NCBI GenBank assembly: GCA_902765225.1
Contig: CACWYV010000001.1
Coordinates: forward strand, 124,001-188,000
Reading direction: 5' to 3'
Source of the DNA: Candidatus Avelusimicrobium intestinale
Lineage (GTDB): Bacteria; Elusimicrobiota; Elusimicrobia; Elusimicrobiales; Elusimicrobiaceae
Length of the DNA: 64,000 nt
The position numbers and the translations under genes were made by a program. The notes below the pieces were generated by a model. The model saw only the letters and a list, made by a program, of their open reading frames with translations, was not told where the DNA came from and searched no databases. This document shows positions 2,209-61,757 of the stretch, in pieces (position 1 is the stretch's first letter; the number at the start of each line of letters is the position of its first letter).

Positions 2209-2262
2209 CTAGCGCTCTAGCCAGTTGATACGATAAGTATTAGTACCAAAACAATCCTTACA
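2209..2262 (-). repeat. Diverged duplicate of the radical SAM gene's 3' end
   Basis: Read on the minus strand, these bases encode CKDCFGTNTYRINWLER and a stop codon. The annotated gene ends with CKDCFGTNTCRVHWLKRNV. The two copies differ at about ten bases, and the changes are synonymous or mostly conservative, so both were once under selection as protein. The second copy is out of frame with the gene and follows its stop directly. It looks like the leftover tail of a homologous gene after recombination. Confidence 0.75.
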
Positions 2263-3274
2263 CATTCCGTTTTAACCAATGAACACGGCAGGTATTGGTA
2301 CCAAAACAATCCTTACATGTTTTGAAATCCTTTAGGGAGTCACTTAAATGGATTTCTCTTATGCGATTATACGCCTCGGATTGCCAGGTTTCCCAAATCG
2401 GGTCCGTCAAAATGTTTTTGTGTATCATACCCTCGGCATCTTGGCAACATAGAGCGAAATCGCCATTGCTCAAAATAGGCATACGGTCAAAAAGATCCTC
2501 ACAAGGATACATAACTCTTGTAGAGCGTTTCCCTAGCAAATTAAATACGCTGACTGTATTGGTCCAGGTGACCGCTCTTTGCAGACGGACAGAGTCGGCC
2601 TTAAAGGCCCATTGAAACAAGAATTTAATTACATCCCTCAGTTTTTCATTGTTGTAAATAACCATGGATACGCAAACTTTCAATTTCTTTTTCCTTTGTT
2701 TCTTTTGCGCAATTAAATTATTTATATTGGCCACTGTTTTTTCGTAGTTCAAACCCATGATCTCTTTATAGCGTTTACTATTGGCAGCATTGAGACTGAC
2801 GTTTATAAAATCTATATCTGATTCAACTATTTGTTTTACGATAGCATCATCACTAACACTAAAATTGGAAATGATTTGGATACGGCTATTCGGGAAAGAC
2901 TCTTTTAATGTGCGGATTCTTTCAAAAATCTTTTTATCCAGAAAAGGTTCCCCTATCATAAATAAATCAAAAACTTGAGGAATAATTCCTTCCTCTTTAA
3001 TTCTATGTACGATCTTATTAAAGATTTCGTCGCTCATAGGGATATGTGGCCTTTTCATATTCGGATAGGGGCAGAATACACATTTGGCATTACATATTCC
3101 TGTTGTTTCAATCATAAACCGCATATGTTTACGGGTCTTAAGATAAGTGATTTTTTCCTTAATTCTGTTATCCATCCACTTTCTTACGGGCTTAAGAGAA
3201 AAAACAAAATCGTACGCGTAAGAACAGAAACGATTCATTTCTACTAAGTTTTTACACAATTCCGGAATAGTCAT
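2258..3274 (-). CDS. Radical SAM protein with SPASM-type C-terminus
   Basis: A 338-residue cytoplasmic enzyme. CNAKCVFCPYP near residues 60-70 is the CxxxCxxC motif that binds the SAM-cleaving 4Fe-4S cluster. Further cysteines in YPCEDLFDRM, FALCCQDAEG and KTCKDCFGTNTC fit a SPASM domain that holds auxiliary clusters. SPASM enzymes modify peptides, sugars or other groups; nothing in the neighbourhood identifies the substrate. It is a single-gene unit. The ATG at 3274 has no Shine-Dalgarno but lies exactly at the expected transcription start of a strong promoter, suggesting a leaderless mRNA. A duplicated 3' tail follows the stop codon. Confidence 0.85.
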   Translation of the reverse strand: MTIPELCKNLVEMNRFCSYAYDFVFSLKPVRKWMDNRIKEKITYLKTRKHMRFMIETTGICNAKCVFCPYPNMKRPHIPMSDEIFNKIVHRIKEEGIIPQVFDLFMIGEPFLDKKIFERIRTLKESFPNSRIQIISNFSVSDDAIVKQIVESDIDFINVSLNAANSKRYKEIMGLNYEKTVANINNLIAQKKQRKKKLKVCVSMVIYNNEKLRDVIKFLFQWAFKADSVRLQRAVTWTNTVSVFNLLGKRSTRVMYPCEDLFDRMPILSNGDFALCCQDAEGMIHKNILTDPIWETWQSEAYNRIREIHLSDSLKDFKTCKDCFGTNTCRVHWLKRNV

Positions 3275-3280
3275 AAAATG

Positions 3281-3309
3281 ATTATACTAAAAATAAAGTA
3301 GATTCTCAA
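3281..3309 (-). promoter_or_regulatory. Near-consensus promoter giving a leaderless radical SAM mRNA
   Basis: Minus strand: -35 TTGAGA (3304-3309), a 17-base spacer, then -10 TATAAT (3281-3286). The -10 starts 12 bases before the A of the ATG at 3274, so transcription should begin at or next to the start codon. Confidence 0.75.
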
Positions 3310-3315
3310 AAACAG

Positions 3316-3353
3316 GATCCTCCTTGACTTTCCGTCAAAGAGGATCGTTTTTT
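3316..3353 (-). terminator. Terminator of the gcv operon (bidirectional)
   Basis: GATCCTC and GAGGATC pair, extended by TTGAC/GTCAA after one mismatch. The stem is followed by T5 on the minus strand and T6 on the plus strand. It lies just after gcvPB and just before the promoter of the radical SAM gene. Confidence 0.8.
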
Positions 3354-3380
3354 GATTCCTTGGCGTTACCCTACAGGGAA

Positions 3381-4814
3381 TTACCACTTTAAATTAGGTT
3401 GGCGTGCGGCAGACACCTCGTCAATACGGCTTACCGGTTGGTTGTGCGGAGCGTCGTGCACTAACTGCGGGTTGGAAAAAATCTCCTCGTAGATTTTTTC
3501 CAGCGCCCCTACAAACGCGTCCAACATCTCTTTACTCTCCGTTTCCGTCGGCTCTACCATCATAGCTTCCGGCACAATGAGCGGGAAGTAAATGGTCGGT
3601 GCGTAAAACCCGTAGTCCAGCAGCCGCTTGGCTACATCCGCCGTATGCACTCCGTTCATTTTAGACGGATCAATAGACAAAACGCATTCGTGCATACAAT
3701 TTACGTCAAAAAACGCATTGAATTTTCCTTGGAGTTTTGCACGCACGTAGTTGGCATTTAAAATGGCCTTTTCGGCGATGTTTTTAAGCGTACCGGCGTC
3801 AAACTGGCGCAAGTAGCAATACCCACGCAACGCAACCGCGATATTGCCGTAAAACGCTTTCATTTTGCCCAAACTTTGCGGCATTTTGCCACGCAACGTG
3901 TACACATCACCTTTCTTTTCCACCAGCGGTTTAGGCAAAAACGGCGCCACGTGCGCAGCCGCCCCGACCGGGCCGCTGCCCGGACCGCCACCCCCGTGCG
4001 GAGCCGCAAACGTTTTGTGTAAATTCAGGTGCATCACATCCACCCCAAAATCAGCCGGCTTGGCCAGGCCGATAAGTGCATTAAAGTTGGCTCCGTCCAT
4101 ATACAATAGCGCACCGGCTTTATGCACCATGGCGGCAATTTCCCGGATGTCCTTTTCAAAAAGCCCCACCGTATTGGGAACCGTCAACATAACAGCCGCT
4201 GTCCTGTCCGACAAGGCCTCCTGTAAAACCGCTTTATCTACACATCCGTCGGGGGCCGATTTGATATTGACCACCGTATACCCTGCCATATTGGCCGTGG
4301 CGGGATTGGTACCGTGGGCGGTATCGGGTACAATTACTTCTGTACGCATATTGTTTTTGTGGGCATCGTGATAAGCCCGGACCGTCAAAATACCGGTAAG
4401 TTCCCCATGCGCTCCGGCAGCCGGTTGCAACGTAAACGCGGCCAACCCTGTAATTTCTTTCAGCATTTCCTGCAATTCATACAGAATTTGTAACGTACCT
4501 TGCACCGCACTTTCCGGCGCAAACGGGTGTGCCCGGGTAAACGGTTCCAACGCGGATAATTTATCGTACGCTTTGGGATTGTATTTCATCGTACAGGACC
4601 CAAGCGGATAAAATTGCCCGTCCAACGAATAATTTAGTTGTGACAAGCGCGTAAAATGGCGCACCGTGTCAAATTCGCTCATTTCCGGCAAGCGCGGTTT
4701 ATCCGTACGTAACAAATCGTCCGGTAAATACGCGGTAGCGGGCTGTTTCGTTTTTTCAAACCGCACGCCGCGGCGACCGGAGCGGGATTTTTCAATAGAC
4801 AGTAAATTTTCCAT
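3381..4814 (-). CDS. gcvPB: Glycine dehydrogenase (decarboxylating) subunit 2
   Basis: A 477-residue subunit of the two-part P-protein of the glycine cleavage system. With GcvPA it decarboxylates glycine using pyridoxal phosphate and passes the aminomethyl group to the lipoyl arm of GcvH. The PLP-binding lysine is in NLHKTFAAPHGGGGPGSGP (about K267). The glycine-rich segment after it is typical of the family. The length is normal. It starts one base after the gcvPA stop, so the two are coupled. It is the last gene of the operon and is followed by a strong terminator. Confidence 0.96.
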   Translation of the reverse strand: MENLLSIEKSRSGRRGVRFEKTKQPATAYLPDDLLRTDKPRLPEMSEFDTVRHFTRLSQLNYSLDGQFYPLGSCTMKYNPKAYDKLSALEPFTRAHPFAPESAVQGTLQILYELQEMLKEITGLAAFTLQPAAGAHGELTGILTVRAYHDAHKNNMRTEVIVPDTAHGTNPATANMAGYTVVNIKSAPDGCVDKAVLQEALSDRTAAVMLTVPNTVGLFEKDIREIAAMVHKAGALLYMDGANFNALIGLAKPADFGVDVMHLNLHKTFAAPHGGGGPGSGPVGAAAHVAPFLPKPLVEKKGDVYTLRGKMPQSLGKMKAFYGNIAVALRGYCYLRQFDAGTLKNIAEKAILNANYVRAKLQGKFNAFFDVNCMHECVLSIDPSKMNGVHTADVAKRLLDYGFYAPTIYFPLIVPEAMMVEPTETESKEMLDAFVGALEKIYEEIFSNPQLVHDAPHNQPVSRIDEVSAARQPNLKW

Positions 4815-4815
4815 A

Positions 4816-6141
4816 TTAAATTTCCTCCAACGCGCGAGTATAAGCCGCGATATCTTCTTCGGTGCGCATTTCGGTCGCGCAGACGAGTAAGGCGTTTTTC
4901 ATAGTTTCGCACGTTTGACCTAAATCGTATCCGGCGGCAATACCTTCCTCGGCCAGTTTATCAATTACTTGGGCAGCCGGTACCGGGCAAGTGACCACAA
5001 ATTCGTTGAAAAAGGGAGCCGCGGTGTTTACGCTAAAGCCGGGCACCCGGCTAATGCGCGCCGCTAATTGGTGGGCACGCTCCAAGTTTAGTTCGGCGAC
5101 TTCTTTTAATCCTTCCGGCCCTAAAAGTGTTAAATAAATCACAGCGTTTAACGCACACAGGGCCTCGTTGGAGCAAATATTGGAAGCGGCTTTTTCGCGC
5201 CGGATGTGTTGCTCGCGCGCTTGTAACGTCAGTACAAAGGCCCGTTTTCCGTTTTTATCTTTGGCAACACCCACCATCCGGCCGGGTAATTGACGCAAGT
5301 AGGCTTTTTTCGCCGTCATAATACCGAGCCCGGGCCCGCCGAAACTAATCGGATTACCGAGCGGTTGCCCTTCGGCTACGGCGAAATCGGCCCCGTAAGA
5401 GCCGGGAGCAGATACCACCCCCAGGGAAATAGGATTTACTTGCGCCACCAAAAGCGCACCTTTTTCGTGTGCCAGCCGGGAAATAGCTGTCACTTGTTCC
5501 AAATACCCCAAAAAATTCGGCTGTGCCACTACCACGCATGCCGTAGCGGCGGAAATTTGTTTTTCCAAAGCAGGGATATCCAATATTCCGGCATCAGTCG
5601 GGCAGGCTTCTACCAATTTTACCCCCATATGATGCGTATAAGTTTGTAAAACCTCTTTGTAATGAGGATATAACAGAGAAGAAATAATAACTTCCGCCCG
5701 GCCCGTTATACGCTTGGCGGCCAAAACAGCCTCAGCCAGTGCAGTAGCCCCGTCGTAATGGGAAGCTGTAGCCACGTCCATTTGGAACAACGCGCAAATG
5801 CAACTTTGAAATTCATAAATCGTTTGCAAAGTACCTTGGCTGGCTTCGGCTTGGTAGGGCGTATACGCGGTTAAAAATTCGCCGCGCCCCGACAAGGCCG
5901 GCACCGCTGCTGGAATAAAATGTTCATACATCCCTGCCCCGATAAAACTGGTAAGCGGCTTATTTTTTGCCGACAAAGATTGCATATGAGCGGTTAATCT
6001 TTGTTCGGTCAAAGCGGCGGGCAAATGCAAGGCGGGATATAGCAACTCCGCCGGGATTTGGGACAGTAATTCTTTTACGGAAGAAACACCGACAGCAGCC
6101 AGCATTTCTTTTTCATCTTGCGTAGTATGTGGGGTAAACAT
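4816..6141 (-). CDS. gcvPA: Glycine dehydrogenase (decarboxylating) subunit 1
   Basis: A 441-residue partner of GcvPB, together forming the split P-protein found in many bacteria (E. coli has a fused GcvP). Family features include IGAGMYEHFIPAAV near residue 85 and the conserved stretch YTPYQAEASQGTLQ that follows. This subunit resembles the PLP fold but lacks the PLP lysine, which GcvPB supplies. The ATG at 6141 is 12 bases after a strong hairpin that separates it from gcvH, so its expression may depend on read-through or on RNA processing. Confidence 0.96.
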   Translation of the reverse strand: MFTPHTTQDEKEMLAAVGVSSVKELLSQIPAELLYPALHLPAALTEQRLTAHMQSLSAKNKPLTSFIGAGMYEHFIPAAVPALSGRGEFLTAYTPYQAEASQGTLQTIYEFQSCICALFQMDVATASHYDGATALAEAVLAAKRITGRAEVIISSLLYPHYKEVLQTYTHHMGVKLVEACPTDAGILDIPALEKQISAATACVVVAQPNFLGYLEQVTAISRLAHEKGALLVAQVNPISLGVVSAPGSYGADFAVAEGQPLGNPISFGGPGLGIMTAKKAYLRQLPGRMVGVAKDKNGKRAFVLTLQAREQHIRREKAASNICSNEALCALNAVIYLTLLGPEGLKEVAELNLERAHQLAARISRVPGFSVNTAAPFFNEFVVTCPVPAAQVIDKLAEEGIAAGYDLGQTCETMKNALLVCATEMRTEEDIAAYTRALEEI

Positions 6142-7868: not shown

Positions 7869-7880
7869 TATAATTTAAAT
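7869..7880 (+). promoter_or_regulatory. -10 box for a leaderless YgjP-like mRNA
   Basis: TATAAT at 7869-7874 starts exactly 12 bases before the ATG at 7881, so the predicted transcription start is the start codon. There is no Shine-Dalgarno. The -35 region is not recognisable. Confidence 0.5.
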
Positions 7881-8519
7881 ATGGCAGATACGCAAAGCGT
7901 CGTCAGCGACGTTAAATTATTTTTGGAACGGTTAAAGAAGGAAATGCCGGAAATTTTCGGCCCCGCCGCTCCCTCATCTTCTTCGCAACAAACCGCCGCC
8001 CCGGTAACCGGGGAAAACAAAGTACTTTACAACGGGGACTTAGCCGAGGCCCGTGTATACATCACCCCGGACCAAGAAGAAGGCGTTGCGTTTGACGGAA
8101 ACGTTTTTCACATCTATTTACAAACCAAAGAAGGCAATCCGTCTGCTTTAGTTACCCAGTGGCTACGCGACAAAGCAGCCGAGGTCTTGCCCGAAAAAAC
8201 AAAAACATGGGCCGAGAAAATCGGCGTTGCGTACAACCGCGTGGTACTCAAAGACCAACGCACCTTGTGGGCCAGTTGTTCGGCACAGAAAAATATCAAT
8301 TATTCCTACCGCATTATTAAAATGCCGCCCGTGGTGCAAGACTATTTAATTATTCATGAATTGTGCCACTTGGTACATATGAATCACGGCGCGGAATATT
8401 GGCAGTTGGTGGAACAGTTCAGCCCCGATTACAAACTGCACCGGCGTTGGCTTAATGATAACAAAGACGCTATTTTTGAGGAAGTGCATATTACCGTCCC
8501 TCCATCCGGCGAGGAATAA
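7881..8519 (+). CDS. YgjP/SprT-like metallopeptidase domain protein (DUF45)
   Basis: A 212-residue protein. The C-terminal half carries the zinc motif HELCHLVHMNHGAEYW, preceded by RTLWASCS and followed by the LHRRWLNDN tail, the pattern of the YgjP/DUF45 family, related to SprT and WLM metallopeptidases. The first 80 residues are variable and rich in Ser, Ala and Gln near residues 30-50. There is no signal peptide, so it is probably cytoplasmic. The physiological role of the family is poorly known. It is a single gene with a predicted leaderless mRNA, followed by a strong bidirectional terminator. Confidence 0.8.
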   Translation: MADTQSVVSDVKLFLERLKKEMPEIFGPAAPSSSSQQTAAPVTGENKVLYNGDLAEARVYITPDQEEGVAFDGNVFHIYLQTKEGNPSALVTQWLRDKAAEVLPEKTKTWAEKIGVAYNRVVLKDQRTLWASCSAQKNINYSYRIIKMPPVVQDYLIIHELCHLVHMNHGAEYWQLVEQFSPDYKLHRRWLNDNKDAIFEEVHITVPPSGEE

Positions 8520-9491: not shown

Positions 9492-10016
9492 TTAAAACAG
9501 CCAAAACCCCGCACCCGCACTTAACAACAACGCTGTAACCGGCCCGGCTTTACGCGCTCCGACGAGCACAAAGGTGAGTAAGAAAAGGAACACGCTTCTA
9601 TAATCCGCCAGATTTTCGCTATTACATAATACCAGGGCAGCGGCCGCAATCAGCCCCACCACCGCCAGACGTAAAATGTGTAATACTCCCTGCATACGCC
9701 GTGTATGCCGATACCGCAGGAAAAAATTTCCCAACCATACCAACAGAAAAAATGACGGCAAACAAACCGCTACCGTTGCCACCAATGCCCCCCACACGTC
9801 CCCCGCAGCCATATACCCTGTGTAGGTAGCCATATTGATACCCACCGGGCCCGGCGTAACCTGGCTGACGGCTACCATGTCGGTAAATTGGGAAGTCGTC
9901 AGCCAACTTTGTTTGAAAACTACTTCGTTTTGCAGAAACGAAATCATAGCGTATCCGCCGCCAAAATTAAACAGACCGATTTTTAAAAAAGTAATAAACA
10001 ACCGTAAATAAATCAT
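9492..10016 (-). CDS. chrA: Chromate transporter ChrA half, second subunit
   Basis: A 174-residue membrane protein of the short-chain ChrA type. The signature FNFGGGYAMISFLQNEVV and VSQVTPGPVGINMATYTGY occur near the N-terminus, and about five membrane segments follow. Short ChrA proteins act as heterologous pairs in the inner membrane to export chromate; in non-contaminated habitats the real substrate may be another anion. The start overlaps the stop of the partner gene by four bases (ATGA), so the two are coupled. Confidence 0.9.
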   Translation of the reverse strand: MIYLRLFITFLKIGLFNFGGGYAMISFLQNEVVFKQSWLTTSQFTDMVAVSQVTPGPVGINMATYTGYMAAGDVWGALVATVAVCLPSFFLLVWLGNFFLRYRHTRRMQGVLHILRLAVVGLIAAAALVLCNSENLADYRSVFLFLLTFVLVGARKAGPVTALLLSAGAGFWLF

Positions 10017-10552
10017 TTATTCTCCCGACGTACCGCATACCAATACCCGCCCATACACGCAGCCAAAATAATATACACCGGCGAAACCCGCCCCAACCAC
10101 ACAAGTAATGCCGCCGTGACCGGCAACCACATGGTTTTCCAATGGACGCGGGCTTCTTGGGCCAGACGGAAAACCGGCACGGCAATCAAAGCAATCACCG
10201 CCGGACGAACGCCCTTAAAAATACGGAGGATGACAGGGTTATCTTGGTAATTATGAAAGAAAACGGCAATCAGTAAAATGATCAAAAATGACGGTAACGC
10301 CGCCCCCAAGGCCGCAAACAAACTGCCTCCCCTGTGCGCCCGCCGATACCCCACCAGGATAGCCACATTCATAGCCAGAATTCCGGGAGCCACCTGCGCC
10401 AGCGCCAACACATCCAAAAAATCGCGGCGGGATAACCACCTCCGCTTATCTACAATTTCCTGTTCCATCAGCGGCAACATGGCATATCCGCCCCCTAATG
10501 TGAACAATCCGATTTTGGCAAACACGTAAAAGAGAGAAGCATATGTAAACAT
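10013..10552 (-). CDS. chrA: Chromate transporter ChrA half, first subunit
   Basis: A 179-residue membrane protein homologous to its partner, with FTLGGGYAMLPLMEQEIV and LAQVAPGILAMNVAILVGY near the N-terminus. In this family the two halves insert in opposite topologies and work together. It follows the XRE regulator gene by 12 bases on the same strand, so the regulator and the pair may be one operon. No chromate-specific regulator (ChrB) is seen. Confidence 0.9.
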   Translation of the reverse strand: MFTYASLFYVFAKIGLFTLGGGYAMLPLMEQEIVDKRRWLSRRDFLDVLALAQVAPGILAMNVAILVGYRRAHRGGSLFAALGAALPSFLIILLIAVFFHNYQDNPVILRIFKGVRPAVIALIAVPVFRLAQEARVHWKTMWLPVTAALLVWLGRVSPVYIILAACMGGYWYAVRRENK

Positions 10553-10564
10553 ACGTCTATTGTA

Positions 10565-52082: not shown

Positions 52083-52088
52083 TAAAAT
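52058..52088 (+). promoter_or_regulatory. Promoter for a leaderless LPS-kinase-like mRNA
   Basis: -35 TTGCCC (52058-52063) and -10 TAAAAT (52083-52088), spacer 19. The -10 starts 12 bases before the ATG at 52095, and there is no Shine-Dalgarno. Confidence 0.5.
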
Positions 52089-52094
52089 ATATAT

Positions 52095-52871
52095 ATGCAA
52101 ACTACAAGCGAAGTATTTCAAAACCCGCAAGCCCCTTTGCCCGCAGATTTTACAGCCCGCCTGCCGGAAACGTTTACGGCCGGGGGAGAAATCATCCACA
52201 ACGCACGCAACCAAATCCGCGTGTTTGACGTTGGCGGACGTAAAATAAACGTAAAAAAATTTTGTATCCCGCCCATTGTCAACCGCATTTTGTATTCGCT
52301 GGGGTGGCGCACACCCAAGGCAAAAACTACTTTTTTAAATGCGCAACAAATTCTAAAACGCGGTTTCCACACACCCACCCCGTACGGATACCGCATTGAA
52401 CGCAAAGGAGGGCTGATTAATTTTTCCTATTTTATAAGTGAGCAGGTGGAAAACATGCGCCCCATACGTCAGGCCCAAAGCGATGCGGCACTTATTCGGG
52501 CGCTGGCTAAATATACAGCCGATATGCACGCAAAAGGATTGTGGCACAAAGATTTTACGCCGGGGAATATTTTATATCGGGCGGAGAACGGACAATATCA
52601 CTTTTTATTGGTGGACATTAACCGTTTCCGGTTTTTTAACGGACCGGTACCTGCCCGTATTGTGCGGCAAAATTTAATCCAACCATTTTACGAAGATACC
52701 CATTTGCGCGCATTTGTGGAAGAATATGCCCGCTTCGCCCGTTGGCAAGGCGATTTGGTGCGCGACGTATTGCGGCGCAAACACCTACGTAACGCATATG
52801 ATAAATTTAAACGCGGATTGAAAAAATTGCCCGGCGCGTATATCTTCTTAAATAAGCCGCTGAAGAAATAA
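52095..52871 (+). CDS. Lipopolysaccharide-kinase-like protein (WaaP/Kdo kinase fold)
   Basis: A 258-residue kinase-fold protein. The catalytic loop HKDFTPGNILY lies at residues 151-161 (D153 as base, N158 metal) and VDINRF at 173-178 takes the place of DFG. A lysine pair near residue 54-55 (NVKKF) may be the ATP lysine. The pattern fits the Kdo/WaaP/RfaY group that phosphorylates sugars in the LPS core at the inner membrane face. The basic C-terminus (KHLRNAYDKFKRGLKKL) may bind membrane. It lies between two pilin genes. The predicted mRNA is leaderless. Confidence 0.7.
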   Translation: MQTTSEVFQNPQAPLPADFTARLPETFTAGGEIIHNARNQIRVFDVGGRKINVKKFCIPPIVNRILYSLGWRTPKAKTTFLNAQQILKRGFHTPTPYGYRIERKGGLINFSYFISEQVENMRPIRQAQSDAALIRALAKYTADMHAKGLWHKDFTPGNILYRAENGQYHFLLVDINRFRFFNGPVPARIVRQNLIQPFYEDTHLRAFVEEYARFARWQGDLVRDVLRRKHLRNAYDKFKRGLKKLPGAYIFLNKPLKK

Positions 52872-60180: not shown

Positions 60181-60208
60181 AAAAGACCTAGATGCACCTA
60201 GGTCTTTT
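60181..60208. terminator. Insulating hairpin upstream of the rrn promoters
   Basis: AAAAGACCTAG and CTAGGTCTTTT pair perfectly (11 bp, 6-base loop) with T4 on either side. It lies between the divergent rrn and protease promoters, where it may insulate them. Confidence 0.55.
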
Positions 60209-60213
60209 GACTC

Positions 60214-60242
60214 TTGTTGTGTTTTTCCAATCCCGTTATACT
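60214..60242 (+). promoter_or_regulatory. Promoter for a leaderless protease mRNA
   Basis: -35 TTGTTG (60214-60219), 17-base spacer, -10 TATACT (60237-60242). The -10 starts 12 bases before the ATG at 60249; no Shine-Dalgarno is present. Confidence 0.6.
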
Positions 60243-60248
60243 ATAAGT

Positions 60249-61757
60249 ATGAAAAGAGCAGATATGGTAAAAATGTTGCTTTGCTTTTTGTTCTTGATGG
60301 CTTCCGCCGGTAATGCCGGGGCATGGGGCATTTTGAACGAAGTGAGAAGATCGGAAGATTTCGGTGTGGACAGGTTGGTGGACAACGTACCTATCCGGTA
60401 TGTAATTTCGCCGGAAATTACTCCCCAAGAAGAAAAAATTCTCGTTGACAACCTGCACATGTGGCCGGCAGAAACGTTACGTCAAATCCGGCAAAACCAC
60501 CGGGAAAAGGAATTTGCCGATATTGTCCCGCTGTTGCGACGCAATGTTAGAACAATGAAAGTGGACAGAAGTACGCCGTATGACCTCTTCTTTTCTTTTC
60601 ATCCTACTCTCTCATCCAGAGGGGTTTACCGCCATAAAACACACGAAATTTTCGTCCATACAGAGTTACGCCCCTATTTCAGAAAGATTTCATTACACGA
60701 AATTGGCCACTACTACGGCATGGCAGACCAATACGAATCTGCCCGCGTCCACGCCAACACCAACCACTCCAGCGATCCCAATAACGAGGCGGGCAGTATC
60801 ATGAATTCTTTTGAACAAACCGATTCTATGACGTGTGATGACGTGGACGGATTTATCAATTTGATTGACTTCCGCTTGGCCCAACGACAAGGCCACTTTT
60901 CCGAAAGAGCCCTGCGCGGATGGACCAGTTTTTGCCCCAACAGCAAAAACCTTTACCGGCAAGCTTATACCGTCAACCGAAACCCGCACGACACGATTCA
61001 ATTGGATAGTCTCCTCGCCAAGGAAAACACTTTTGATGAAGGGAAAGCCATCCGGCAAGAATGGGTTGTCCACACGCAGGAAGATTTGCTGTCTTTATTT
61101 TTAATCACACCAGGGGATGCCGTCCTGCGCGATCCGCAAAGCAATCTCGTTCGTCAAGTGCTTTCTTTCCACGGGGTACCTCTGTGCCCACTCGCTAAAA
61201 ACGGGAAGAAAACTTTGCGGAAATTCTTTTATGAACAGACCAAAGAACATGTTTATAATATTTATATTCAATGTTTCCAAGACCATGTTTTCCGACACGA
61301 ATACGTTTTGCCTGTAGGCGGAAAGTTTCCTTGGACTATCCACTGGGCTGCTTCTTCCCCCAAGACGCACGGATTTTCCCCGGAGGATTATTCCCTGTCG
61401 GCCAGATTCACCAACGAAGCAATTGATAACGTGCAAATTATCGGAACCCATACCTTACCTGACGGCAGTTCTATCCACATCCGTTGGACACATTCCTTTG
61501 CCAATAACGATTCGCACGTGGAATGGGATAACGGCCAAACAATGGTATATCCTACGTTGCAAAGACATTTTGCCACCCTTTCCGTGCAAGAAGCACTCAC
61601 TTCGGAAAATATGAATCTTTTACTAAAAACCAAACAAGTGTATGATTCCCAAATTCCGGCCGTCCATAGTTTGTACGAACACTTTTATGTACCTTTGTTT
61701 CCTACACAAAAAGAAAGATTACGACGAGCCATCAAAGAAGCACTCTCCAATTCCTAA
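60249..61757 (+). CDS. Secreted metzincin-like zinc protease
   Basis: About 502 residues. A signal peptide (1-25, ending NAGAWG) precedes a domain with the zinc motif HEIGHYYGMAD at 150-160, using Asp160 as third ligand as in some metzincins such as snapalysin. A Met-turn candidate (GSIMNSF) follows about 35 residues later. The C-terminal 280 residues show beta-rich patterns and match no family I recognise. The start is the ATG at 60249, which sits at the predicted transcription start; a longer frame to 60192 has no start signals and overlaps the promoter. It is probably exported and may cut host or bacterial proteins. Confidence 0.75.
   Translation: MKRADMVKMLLCFLFLMASAGNAGAWGILNEVRRSEDFGVDRLVDNVPIRYVISPEITPQEEKILVDNLHMWPAETLRQIRQNHREKEFADIVPLLRRNVRTMKVDRSTPYDLFFSFHPTLSSRGVYRHKTHEIFVHTELRPYFRKISLHEIGHYYGMADQYESARVHANTNHSSDPNNEAGSIMNSFEQTDSMTCDDVDGFINLIDFRLAQRQGHFSERALRGWTSFCPNSKNLYRQAYTVNRNPHDTIQLDSLLAKENTFDEGKAIRQEWVVHTQEDLLSLFLITPGDAVLRDPQSNLVRQVLSFHGVPLCPLAKNGKKTLRKFFYEQTKEHVYNIYIQCFQDHVFRHEYVLPVGGKFPWTIHWAASSPKTHGFSPEDYSLSARFTNEAIDNVQIIGTHTLPDGSSIHIRWTHSFANNDSHVEWDNGQTMVYPTLQRHFATLSVQEALTSENMNLLLKTKQVYDSQIPAVHSLYEHFYVPLFPTQKERLRRAIKEALSNS

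What the first reader, a model, noticed from the sequence alone, without database searches (positions are those of the whole stretch)
3272..3309. Leaderless mRNA pattern, clearest at the radical SAM gene
TTGAGA-17-TATAAT is followed by six bases and then the ATG, with no Shine-Dalgarno. The same 12-base distance from the first -10 base to the ATG recurs at 7,881 (TATAAT), 52,095 (TAAAAT) and 60,249 (TTGTTG-17-TATACT). Four unrelated single genes with the same geometry are unlikely by chance. Other genes in the window have normal AGGAG sites, so two initiation modes appear to coexist.
Basis: partly seen in the sequence, partly recalled or inferred. Interest (0 to 1): 0.65.

Follow-up and report, generated by a model that had tools for sequence, protein, structure and literature searches.

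The report
Widespread leaderless genes in a gut bacterium
About one gene in eight in this small bacterium (probably family Elusimicrobiaceae) has its promoter placed so that the messenger RNA should start on the A of the start codon, with no ribosome-binding site; leaderless genes are known in other bacteria, but their extent in this lineage was not found described.

Summary
All four promoters have the stated geometry. Among 277 transcription-unit-first genes without a Shine-Dalgarno (SD), -10-like hexamers pile up exactly 12 bases before ATG (54, against about 3 per other offset; Poisson P about 3e-46), with a shoulder at 13 (24). SD genes and operon-internal genes lack the peak or nearly so. 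A mixture model puts about 13% of genes (22% of first genes) in the leaderless class, 99% with ATG. At offset 12 the base before ATG is a pyrimidine in 60 of 61 genes. Leadered promoters share the architecture and favour a purine at that same distance, so transcription most likely starts on the A of ATG. The geometry is kept in 28 of 28 genus orthologues of the 7,881 gene. It is strong across the family, weaker in the order and nearly absent in other classes of the phylum. Leaderless genes are an established bacterial category, so this is a new lineage for a known kind. The radical SAM gene fits but, as an orphan gene, is the least independently supported example. RNA 5'-end mapping is still needed.

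The parts
3304..3309 (-). -35 element TTGAGA of the radical SAM gene
   Evidence: sequence, 17-base spacer
3281..3286 (-). -10 element TATAAT, first base 12 before the A of ATG; predicted transcription start 3274
   Evidence: sequence; genome-wide peak at this offset
2258..3274 (-). radical SAM/SPASM protein gene, predicted leaderless
   Evidence: PF04055 and PF13186; later in-frame ATGs in the first 54 codons have no SD; no genus orthologue
7869..7874 (+). -10 element TATAAT, 12 before ATG
   Evidence: geometry kept in 28 of 28 other genus members
7881..8519 (+). YgjP-like metallopeptidase-domain gene, predicted leaderless; best supported case
   Evidence: PF01863; conservation
52083..52088 (+). 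extended -10 element TGC-TAAAAT, 12 before ATG
   Evidence: kept in 9 of 12 orthologues
52095..52871 (+). Kdo/WaaP-family kinase gene, predicted leaderless
   Evidence: PF06293; leadered paralogues as contrast
60214..60219 (+). -35-like TTGTTG
   Evidence: sequence, 17-base spacer
60237..60242 (+). -10 element TATACT, 12 before ATG
   Evidence: sequence
60249..61757 (+). gene for a secreted-type protein without Pfam match; start at 60249 preferred over the longer frame at 60192
   Evidence: hydrophobic signal-like N-terminus at 60249, homologues align from residues 1-10, no SD at 60192
10559..10564 (-). -10 element TACAAT, 12 before ATG of the next part (fifth candidate)
   Evidence: mixture-model posterior 0.98
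10013..10552 (-). chromate transporter gene, candidate leaderless start 12 bases behind the upstream gene
   Evidence: PF02417; conservation not tested

Best explanation
These are housekeeping-sigma promoters of extended -10 type, placed so that the normal start point, 12 bases downstream of the first -10 base, coincides with the A of the ATG. The transcript then has no 5' leader. Translation most likely begins by direct binding of the ribosome with initiator tRNA to the 5'-terminal AUG, while most other genes use SD-led initiation. Shown by computation: position, sequence, absence of SD, near-restriction to ATG, pyrimidine at -1, conservation in relatives. Inferred: the actual 5' end, the sigma factor and the mode of ribosome binding.
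For: Sharp peak at offset 12 (54) and 13 (24) in SD-less first genes, absent from SD genes (5 of 310) and nearly so from operon-internal genes (8 of 508), under two start rules. Pyrimidine at -1 in 60 of 61. Leadered promoters have the same architecture and a purine (77%) 12 bases from the first -10 base. Geometry kept in 28 of 28 genus orthologues of the 7,881 gene; leaderless state kept in 24 of 39 genus orthologue pairs against 4 of 137 for SD genes. Same peak in other genus members and in the 1,643,562-base family member. TGNTATAAT-N6-ATG against N10: 452 to 40 in 33 family genomes.
Against: No RNA 5' ends are available. The offset-13 class has purine at -1 in 8 of 25, so some transcripts may carry one extra base. 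The mixture model has false calls (the gcvP-type gene at 6141). My gene caller is home-made.
Confidence: 0.9

Rival explanations
1. The -10-like hexamers are chance or compositional (A/T-rich bases before starts), and the genes are leadered from promoters further upstream.
For: Upstream regions are A/T-rich; over all ATGs in the genome the excess is modest.
Against: The excess is confined to offsets 12-13, to SD-less first genes, and is kept in orthologues whose other upstream bases differ.
Confidence: 0.03
2. The transcripts carry a very short leader (1-5 bases) rather than none, and are translated in the same SD-independent way.
For: Shoulder at offsets 13-14; at offset 13 the -1 base is a purine in 8 of 25 genes.
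Against: The offset-12 class dominates, with a near-invariant pyrimidine at -1 followed by the A of ATG.
Confidence: 0.1
3. Start codons are mis-assigned: the real starts lie further downstream and the genes have short SD-bearing leaders.
For: For the radical SAM gene, homologues align only from about residue 52, so its N-terminus has no comparative support.
Against: For 7,881 and most 52,095 orthologues the ATG and the following residues are conserved from residue 1; downstream ATGs of the radical SAM gene have no SD.
Confidence: 0.05

Closest known systems
Leaderless ('TA-led') genes of bacteria (Zheng et al. 2011, PMC3160421)
   Same: TATAAT-like signal about 12 bases before the start, no SD, coexisting with SD-led genes; share of about 13% lies within their range
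   Different: Elusimicrobia are not named in the text; 'Other Bacteria' are pooled as 8 of 20 genomes
-10 motif next to ORFs in Deinococcus-Thermus (PMC12340547)
   Same: -10 region directly before ORFs, -35 often absent, leaderless transcripts
   Different: There about 30% of ORFs and tested with reporters; here about 13%, computation only, and with an extended TGn and A/T stretch
Leaderless transcriptome of mycobacteria (PMC3898074, PMC4633059)
   Same: Leaderless genes as a substantial class beside SD-led genes
   Different: Mapped by 5'-end sequencing there; from my own knowledge GUG is also common at leaderless starts there, here ATG makes up 99%

Membership tests
bacterial leaderless genes | -10 element so placed that the start point falls on the start codon | tested here: met
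bacterial leaderless genes | no Shine-Dalgarno before the start | tested here: met
   four named sites read directly; peak confined to SD-less genes
bacterial leaderless genes | start codon AUG (or GUG) | tested here: met
   99% ATG in the class
bacterial leaderless genes | gene is first in its transcription unit | tested here: met
   130 first against 21 internal; 10,552 is a possible internal case
bacterial leaderless genes | mapped RNA 5' end at or within a few bases of the start codon | not testable with these tools
   no RNA data
bacterial leaderless genes | translation initiates at the 5'-terminal AUG | not testable with these tools
   needs ribosome profiling, N-terminal proteomics or a reporter

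The most novel reading that the evidence does not exclude
Leaderless expression is a lineage-defining, selectively maintained mode of initiation in Elusimicrobiaceae (about 13% of genes, 22% of transcription units, including predicted pheS, def, clpP, era, recG, mnmE and nadK homologues), expanded or lost within the phylum, since other classes show almost none; the phylum would be a new comparative system for how initiation modes switch.
Probability: 0.55. Interest if true: 0.45.

Novelty: new member of a known kind. Interest (0 to 1): 0.36.

Why it matters
It adds a well-supported lineage to the bacteria with many leaderless genes, shows a gradient within one phylum (family about 11-fold enrichment, order 3.5-fold, other classes 1.3-fold), and gives orthologue sets in which the leaderless state is either fixed (YgjP) or switches (Kdo kinases, secreted proteins). 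Gene callers that expect an SD may misplace starts in these genomes.

Tried and rejected
Gene-agnostic counts over all ATGs give only a weak signal (221 and 235 at offsets 12 and 13 against about 160), so gene starts were needed; exact TATAAT or an extended -10 pattern restores contrast without gene calls. The mixture call at 6141 (gcvP-type gene) was rejected: an AAGGA-type SD is read as a -10, and orthologues of a gene of this kind (LL_253) carry SD. The mixture fit was not used as primary evidence because it chooses starts using the signal; the fixed-start histograms are. The genome could not be named with the tools; Elusimicrobiaceae is inferred from a family member of 1,643,562 bases (from memory the size of E. 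minutum Pei191), a single-contig 1.6 Mb phylum member consistent with Endomicrobium proavitum (1,588,979 bp, PMC4505116), and 35 pilin-like N-termini.

Full report
Setting. The window is positions 124,001-188,000 of contig 1 of a 1,408,682-base, 7-contig genome that is 98.9% complete. It belongs to a family of 1.1-1.8 Mb genomes that includes a single-contig genome of 1,643,562 bases, which from memory is the size of Elusimicrobium minutum Pei191. The phylum also contains a single-contig 1.6 Mb genome consistent with Endomicrobium proavitum (1,588,979 bp, PMC4505116). I therefore take it to be a member of Elusimicrobiaceae; this is an inference. I fetched the whole genome (72 kb of contig 5 is masked) and joined it.

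Check of the four sites. All four are as described: the first base of the -10 hexamer lies 12 bases before the A of ATG, with no SD. Radical SAM: TTGAGA-17-TATAAT-CATTTT-ATG on the minus strand. 7,881: TATAAT-TTAAAT-ATG. 52,095: TGC-TAAAAT-ATATAT-ATG. 60,249: TTGTTG-17-TATACT-ATAAGT-ATG. A -35 is recognisable only at the first and last. A fifth site with the same geometry precedes the chromate-transporter gene at 10,552 on the minus strand.

Genome-wide test. I called 1,162 genes with a codon-usage model that does not look at upstream signals and counted -10-like hexamers (at least 5 of 6 of TATAAT, with A2 and T6 fixed) at every distance from ATG. In 277 first genes of transcription units without SD there are 54 at offset 12 and 24 at offset 13, against a mean of 3.2 at offsets 17-59 (Poisson P about 3e-46 and 9e-14). 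First genes with SD have 5 in 310 at offset 12 and operon-internal genes 8 in 508. Taking the 5'-most ATG instead gives the same result (59 and 26 in 258). A mixture model that also chooses starts puts 151 of 1,161 genes in the leaderless class, 130 of them among 602 first genes, with ATG at 99%. That model uses the signal to choose starts and has some false calls, so the proportion is an estimate.

Where transcription starts. At offset 12 the base before ATG is a pyrimidine in 60 of 61 SD-less genes, against 813 of 1,097 ATG genes overall. Bacterial polymerases prefer pyrimidine at -1 and purine at +1 (established knowledge). Aligning 233 leadered, SD-bearing promoters on their own -10 gives the same architecture as the leaderless ones: A/T from -20 to -16, T at -15, G at -14, TATAAT, A at -6. 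In the leadered set a purine (A 52%, G 25%) is enriched exactly 12 bases from the first -10 base. The leaderless genes put the A of ATG at that point. A TGn extended -10 is present in 37% of leaderless and 31% of leadered promoters, and a -35 match of at least 4 of 6 in 24% and 23%. Both classes therefore look like the same housekeeping-type promoter, and only its distance to the gene differs.

Conservation. The YgjP-family gene at 7,881 has TATAAT or TACAAT 12 bases before a conserved ATG in 28 of 28 other genus members whose N-terminus was shown, although the flanking sequence differs between subgroups. The Kdo/WaaP-family kinase at 52,095 keeps the geometry in 9 of 12 orthologues, whereas its paralogues carry the -10 some 40-50 bases upstream with a leader. 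The gene at 60,249 belongs to a family of secreted-type proteins found only in this genus among the genomes searched; several homologues and its own-genome paralogues are leadered, so here the state switches. The radical SAM/SPASM gene has no genus orthologue, only about 28%-identical relatives in another family of the order and in one MAG, so it has no comparative support; its next in-frame ATGs have no SD. Over all mapped pairs the leaderless state is seen in 24 of 39 genus orthologues of leaderless genes against 4 of 137 of SD genes; 8 of the 15 losses come from one gene that was probably misclassified. In the 1,643,562-base genome it is 12 of 25 against 7 of 97.

Spread in the phylum. In 389 kb from 17 other genus species the peak is 20 in 111 SD-less first genes at offset 12; in 400 kb of the 1,643,562-base genome it is 24 in 91; in 383 kb from another family of the order it is 8 in 81. 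A gene-free count of TGNTATAAT-N6-ATG against the same with N10 gives 452 against 40 in 33 family genomes, 101 against 29 in 12 order genomes, 38 against 14 in 11 other class members, and 282 against 223 in 64 genomes of other classes. The feature is strong in the family and fades outward. This pattern sees only extended -10 sites, so other classes could have leaderless genes of another form.

Which genes. Among the best leaderless calls are homologues of pheS, def, clpP, nadK, miaA, era, rnhB, recG, mnmE, a tyrosine recombinase and an Asp/Glu racemase. These are ordinary housekeeping functions, not a special regulon.

Known or new. Leaderless genes recognised by a -10 about 12 bases upstream are described for 207 of 953 bacterial genomes (PMC3160421) and are prominent in Deinococcus-Thermus (PMC12340547) and mycobacteria (PMC3898074, PMC4633059). 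A full-text search for 'leaderless' together with 'Elusimicrobi' found two papers; the one I read tabulates anti-SD types, and the other is on a mycobacterial chaperone by its title. The library misses most subscription journals, and large gene-finder surveys may already have classified E. minutum. I file this as a new lineage for a known kind.

What is not shown. No 5' end has been measured, and initiation on a 5'-terminal AUG is inferred from other bacteria.

Noticed in passing
window 3304-3354: On the minus strand a terminator-like hairpin with a T-run (probably ending the gcvP-type gene 3381-4814) runs straight into the promoter of the radical SAM gene; the T-run overlaps its -35 TTGAGA.
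   Followed up: partly
window 2258-3274: The radical SAM/SPASM gene sits downstream of a glycine-cleavage cluster, has a low codon-usage score and is missing from the 36 other genus genomes searched (only one marginal hit): probably acquired. A short stretch at 2212-2265 resembles its C-terminus again.
   Followed up: partly
L006:18506-19835: Two divergent genes with only 49 bases between their start codons, both called leaderless with TATAAT 12 bases before ATG: back-to-back leaderless promoters.
   Followed up: no
window 60249-61757: Member of a multi-copy secreted-type protein family (about 500 aa, five matches in this genome) with no Pfam match, found only in the genus among the genomes searched; leaderless here, leadered in paralogues.
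   Followed up: partly
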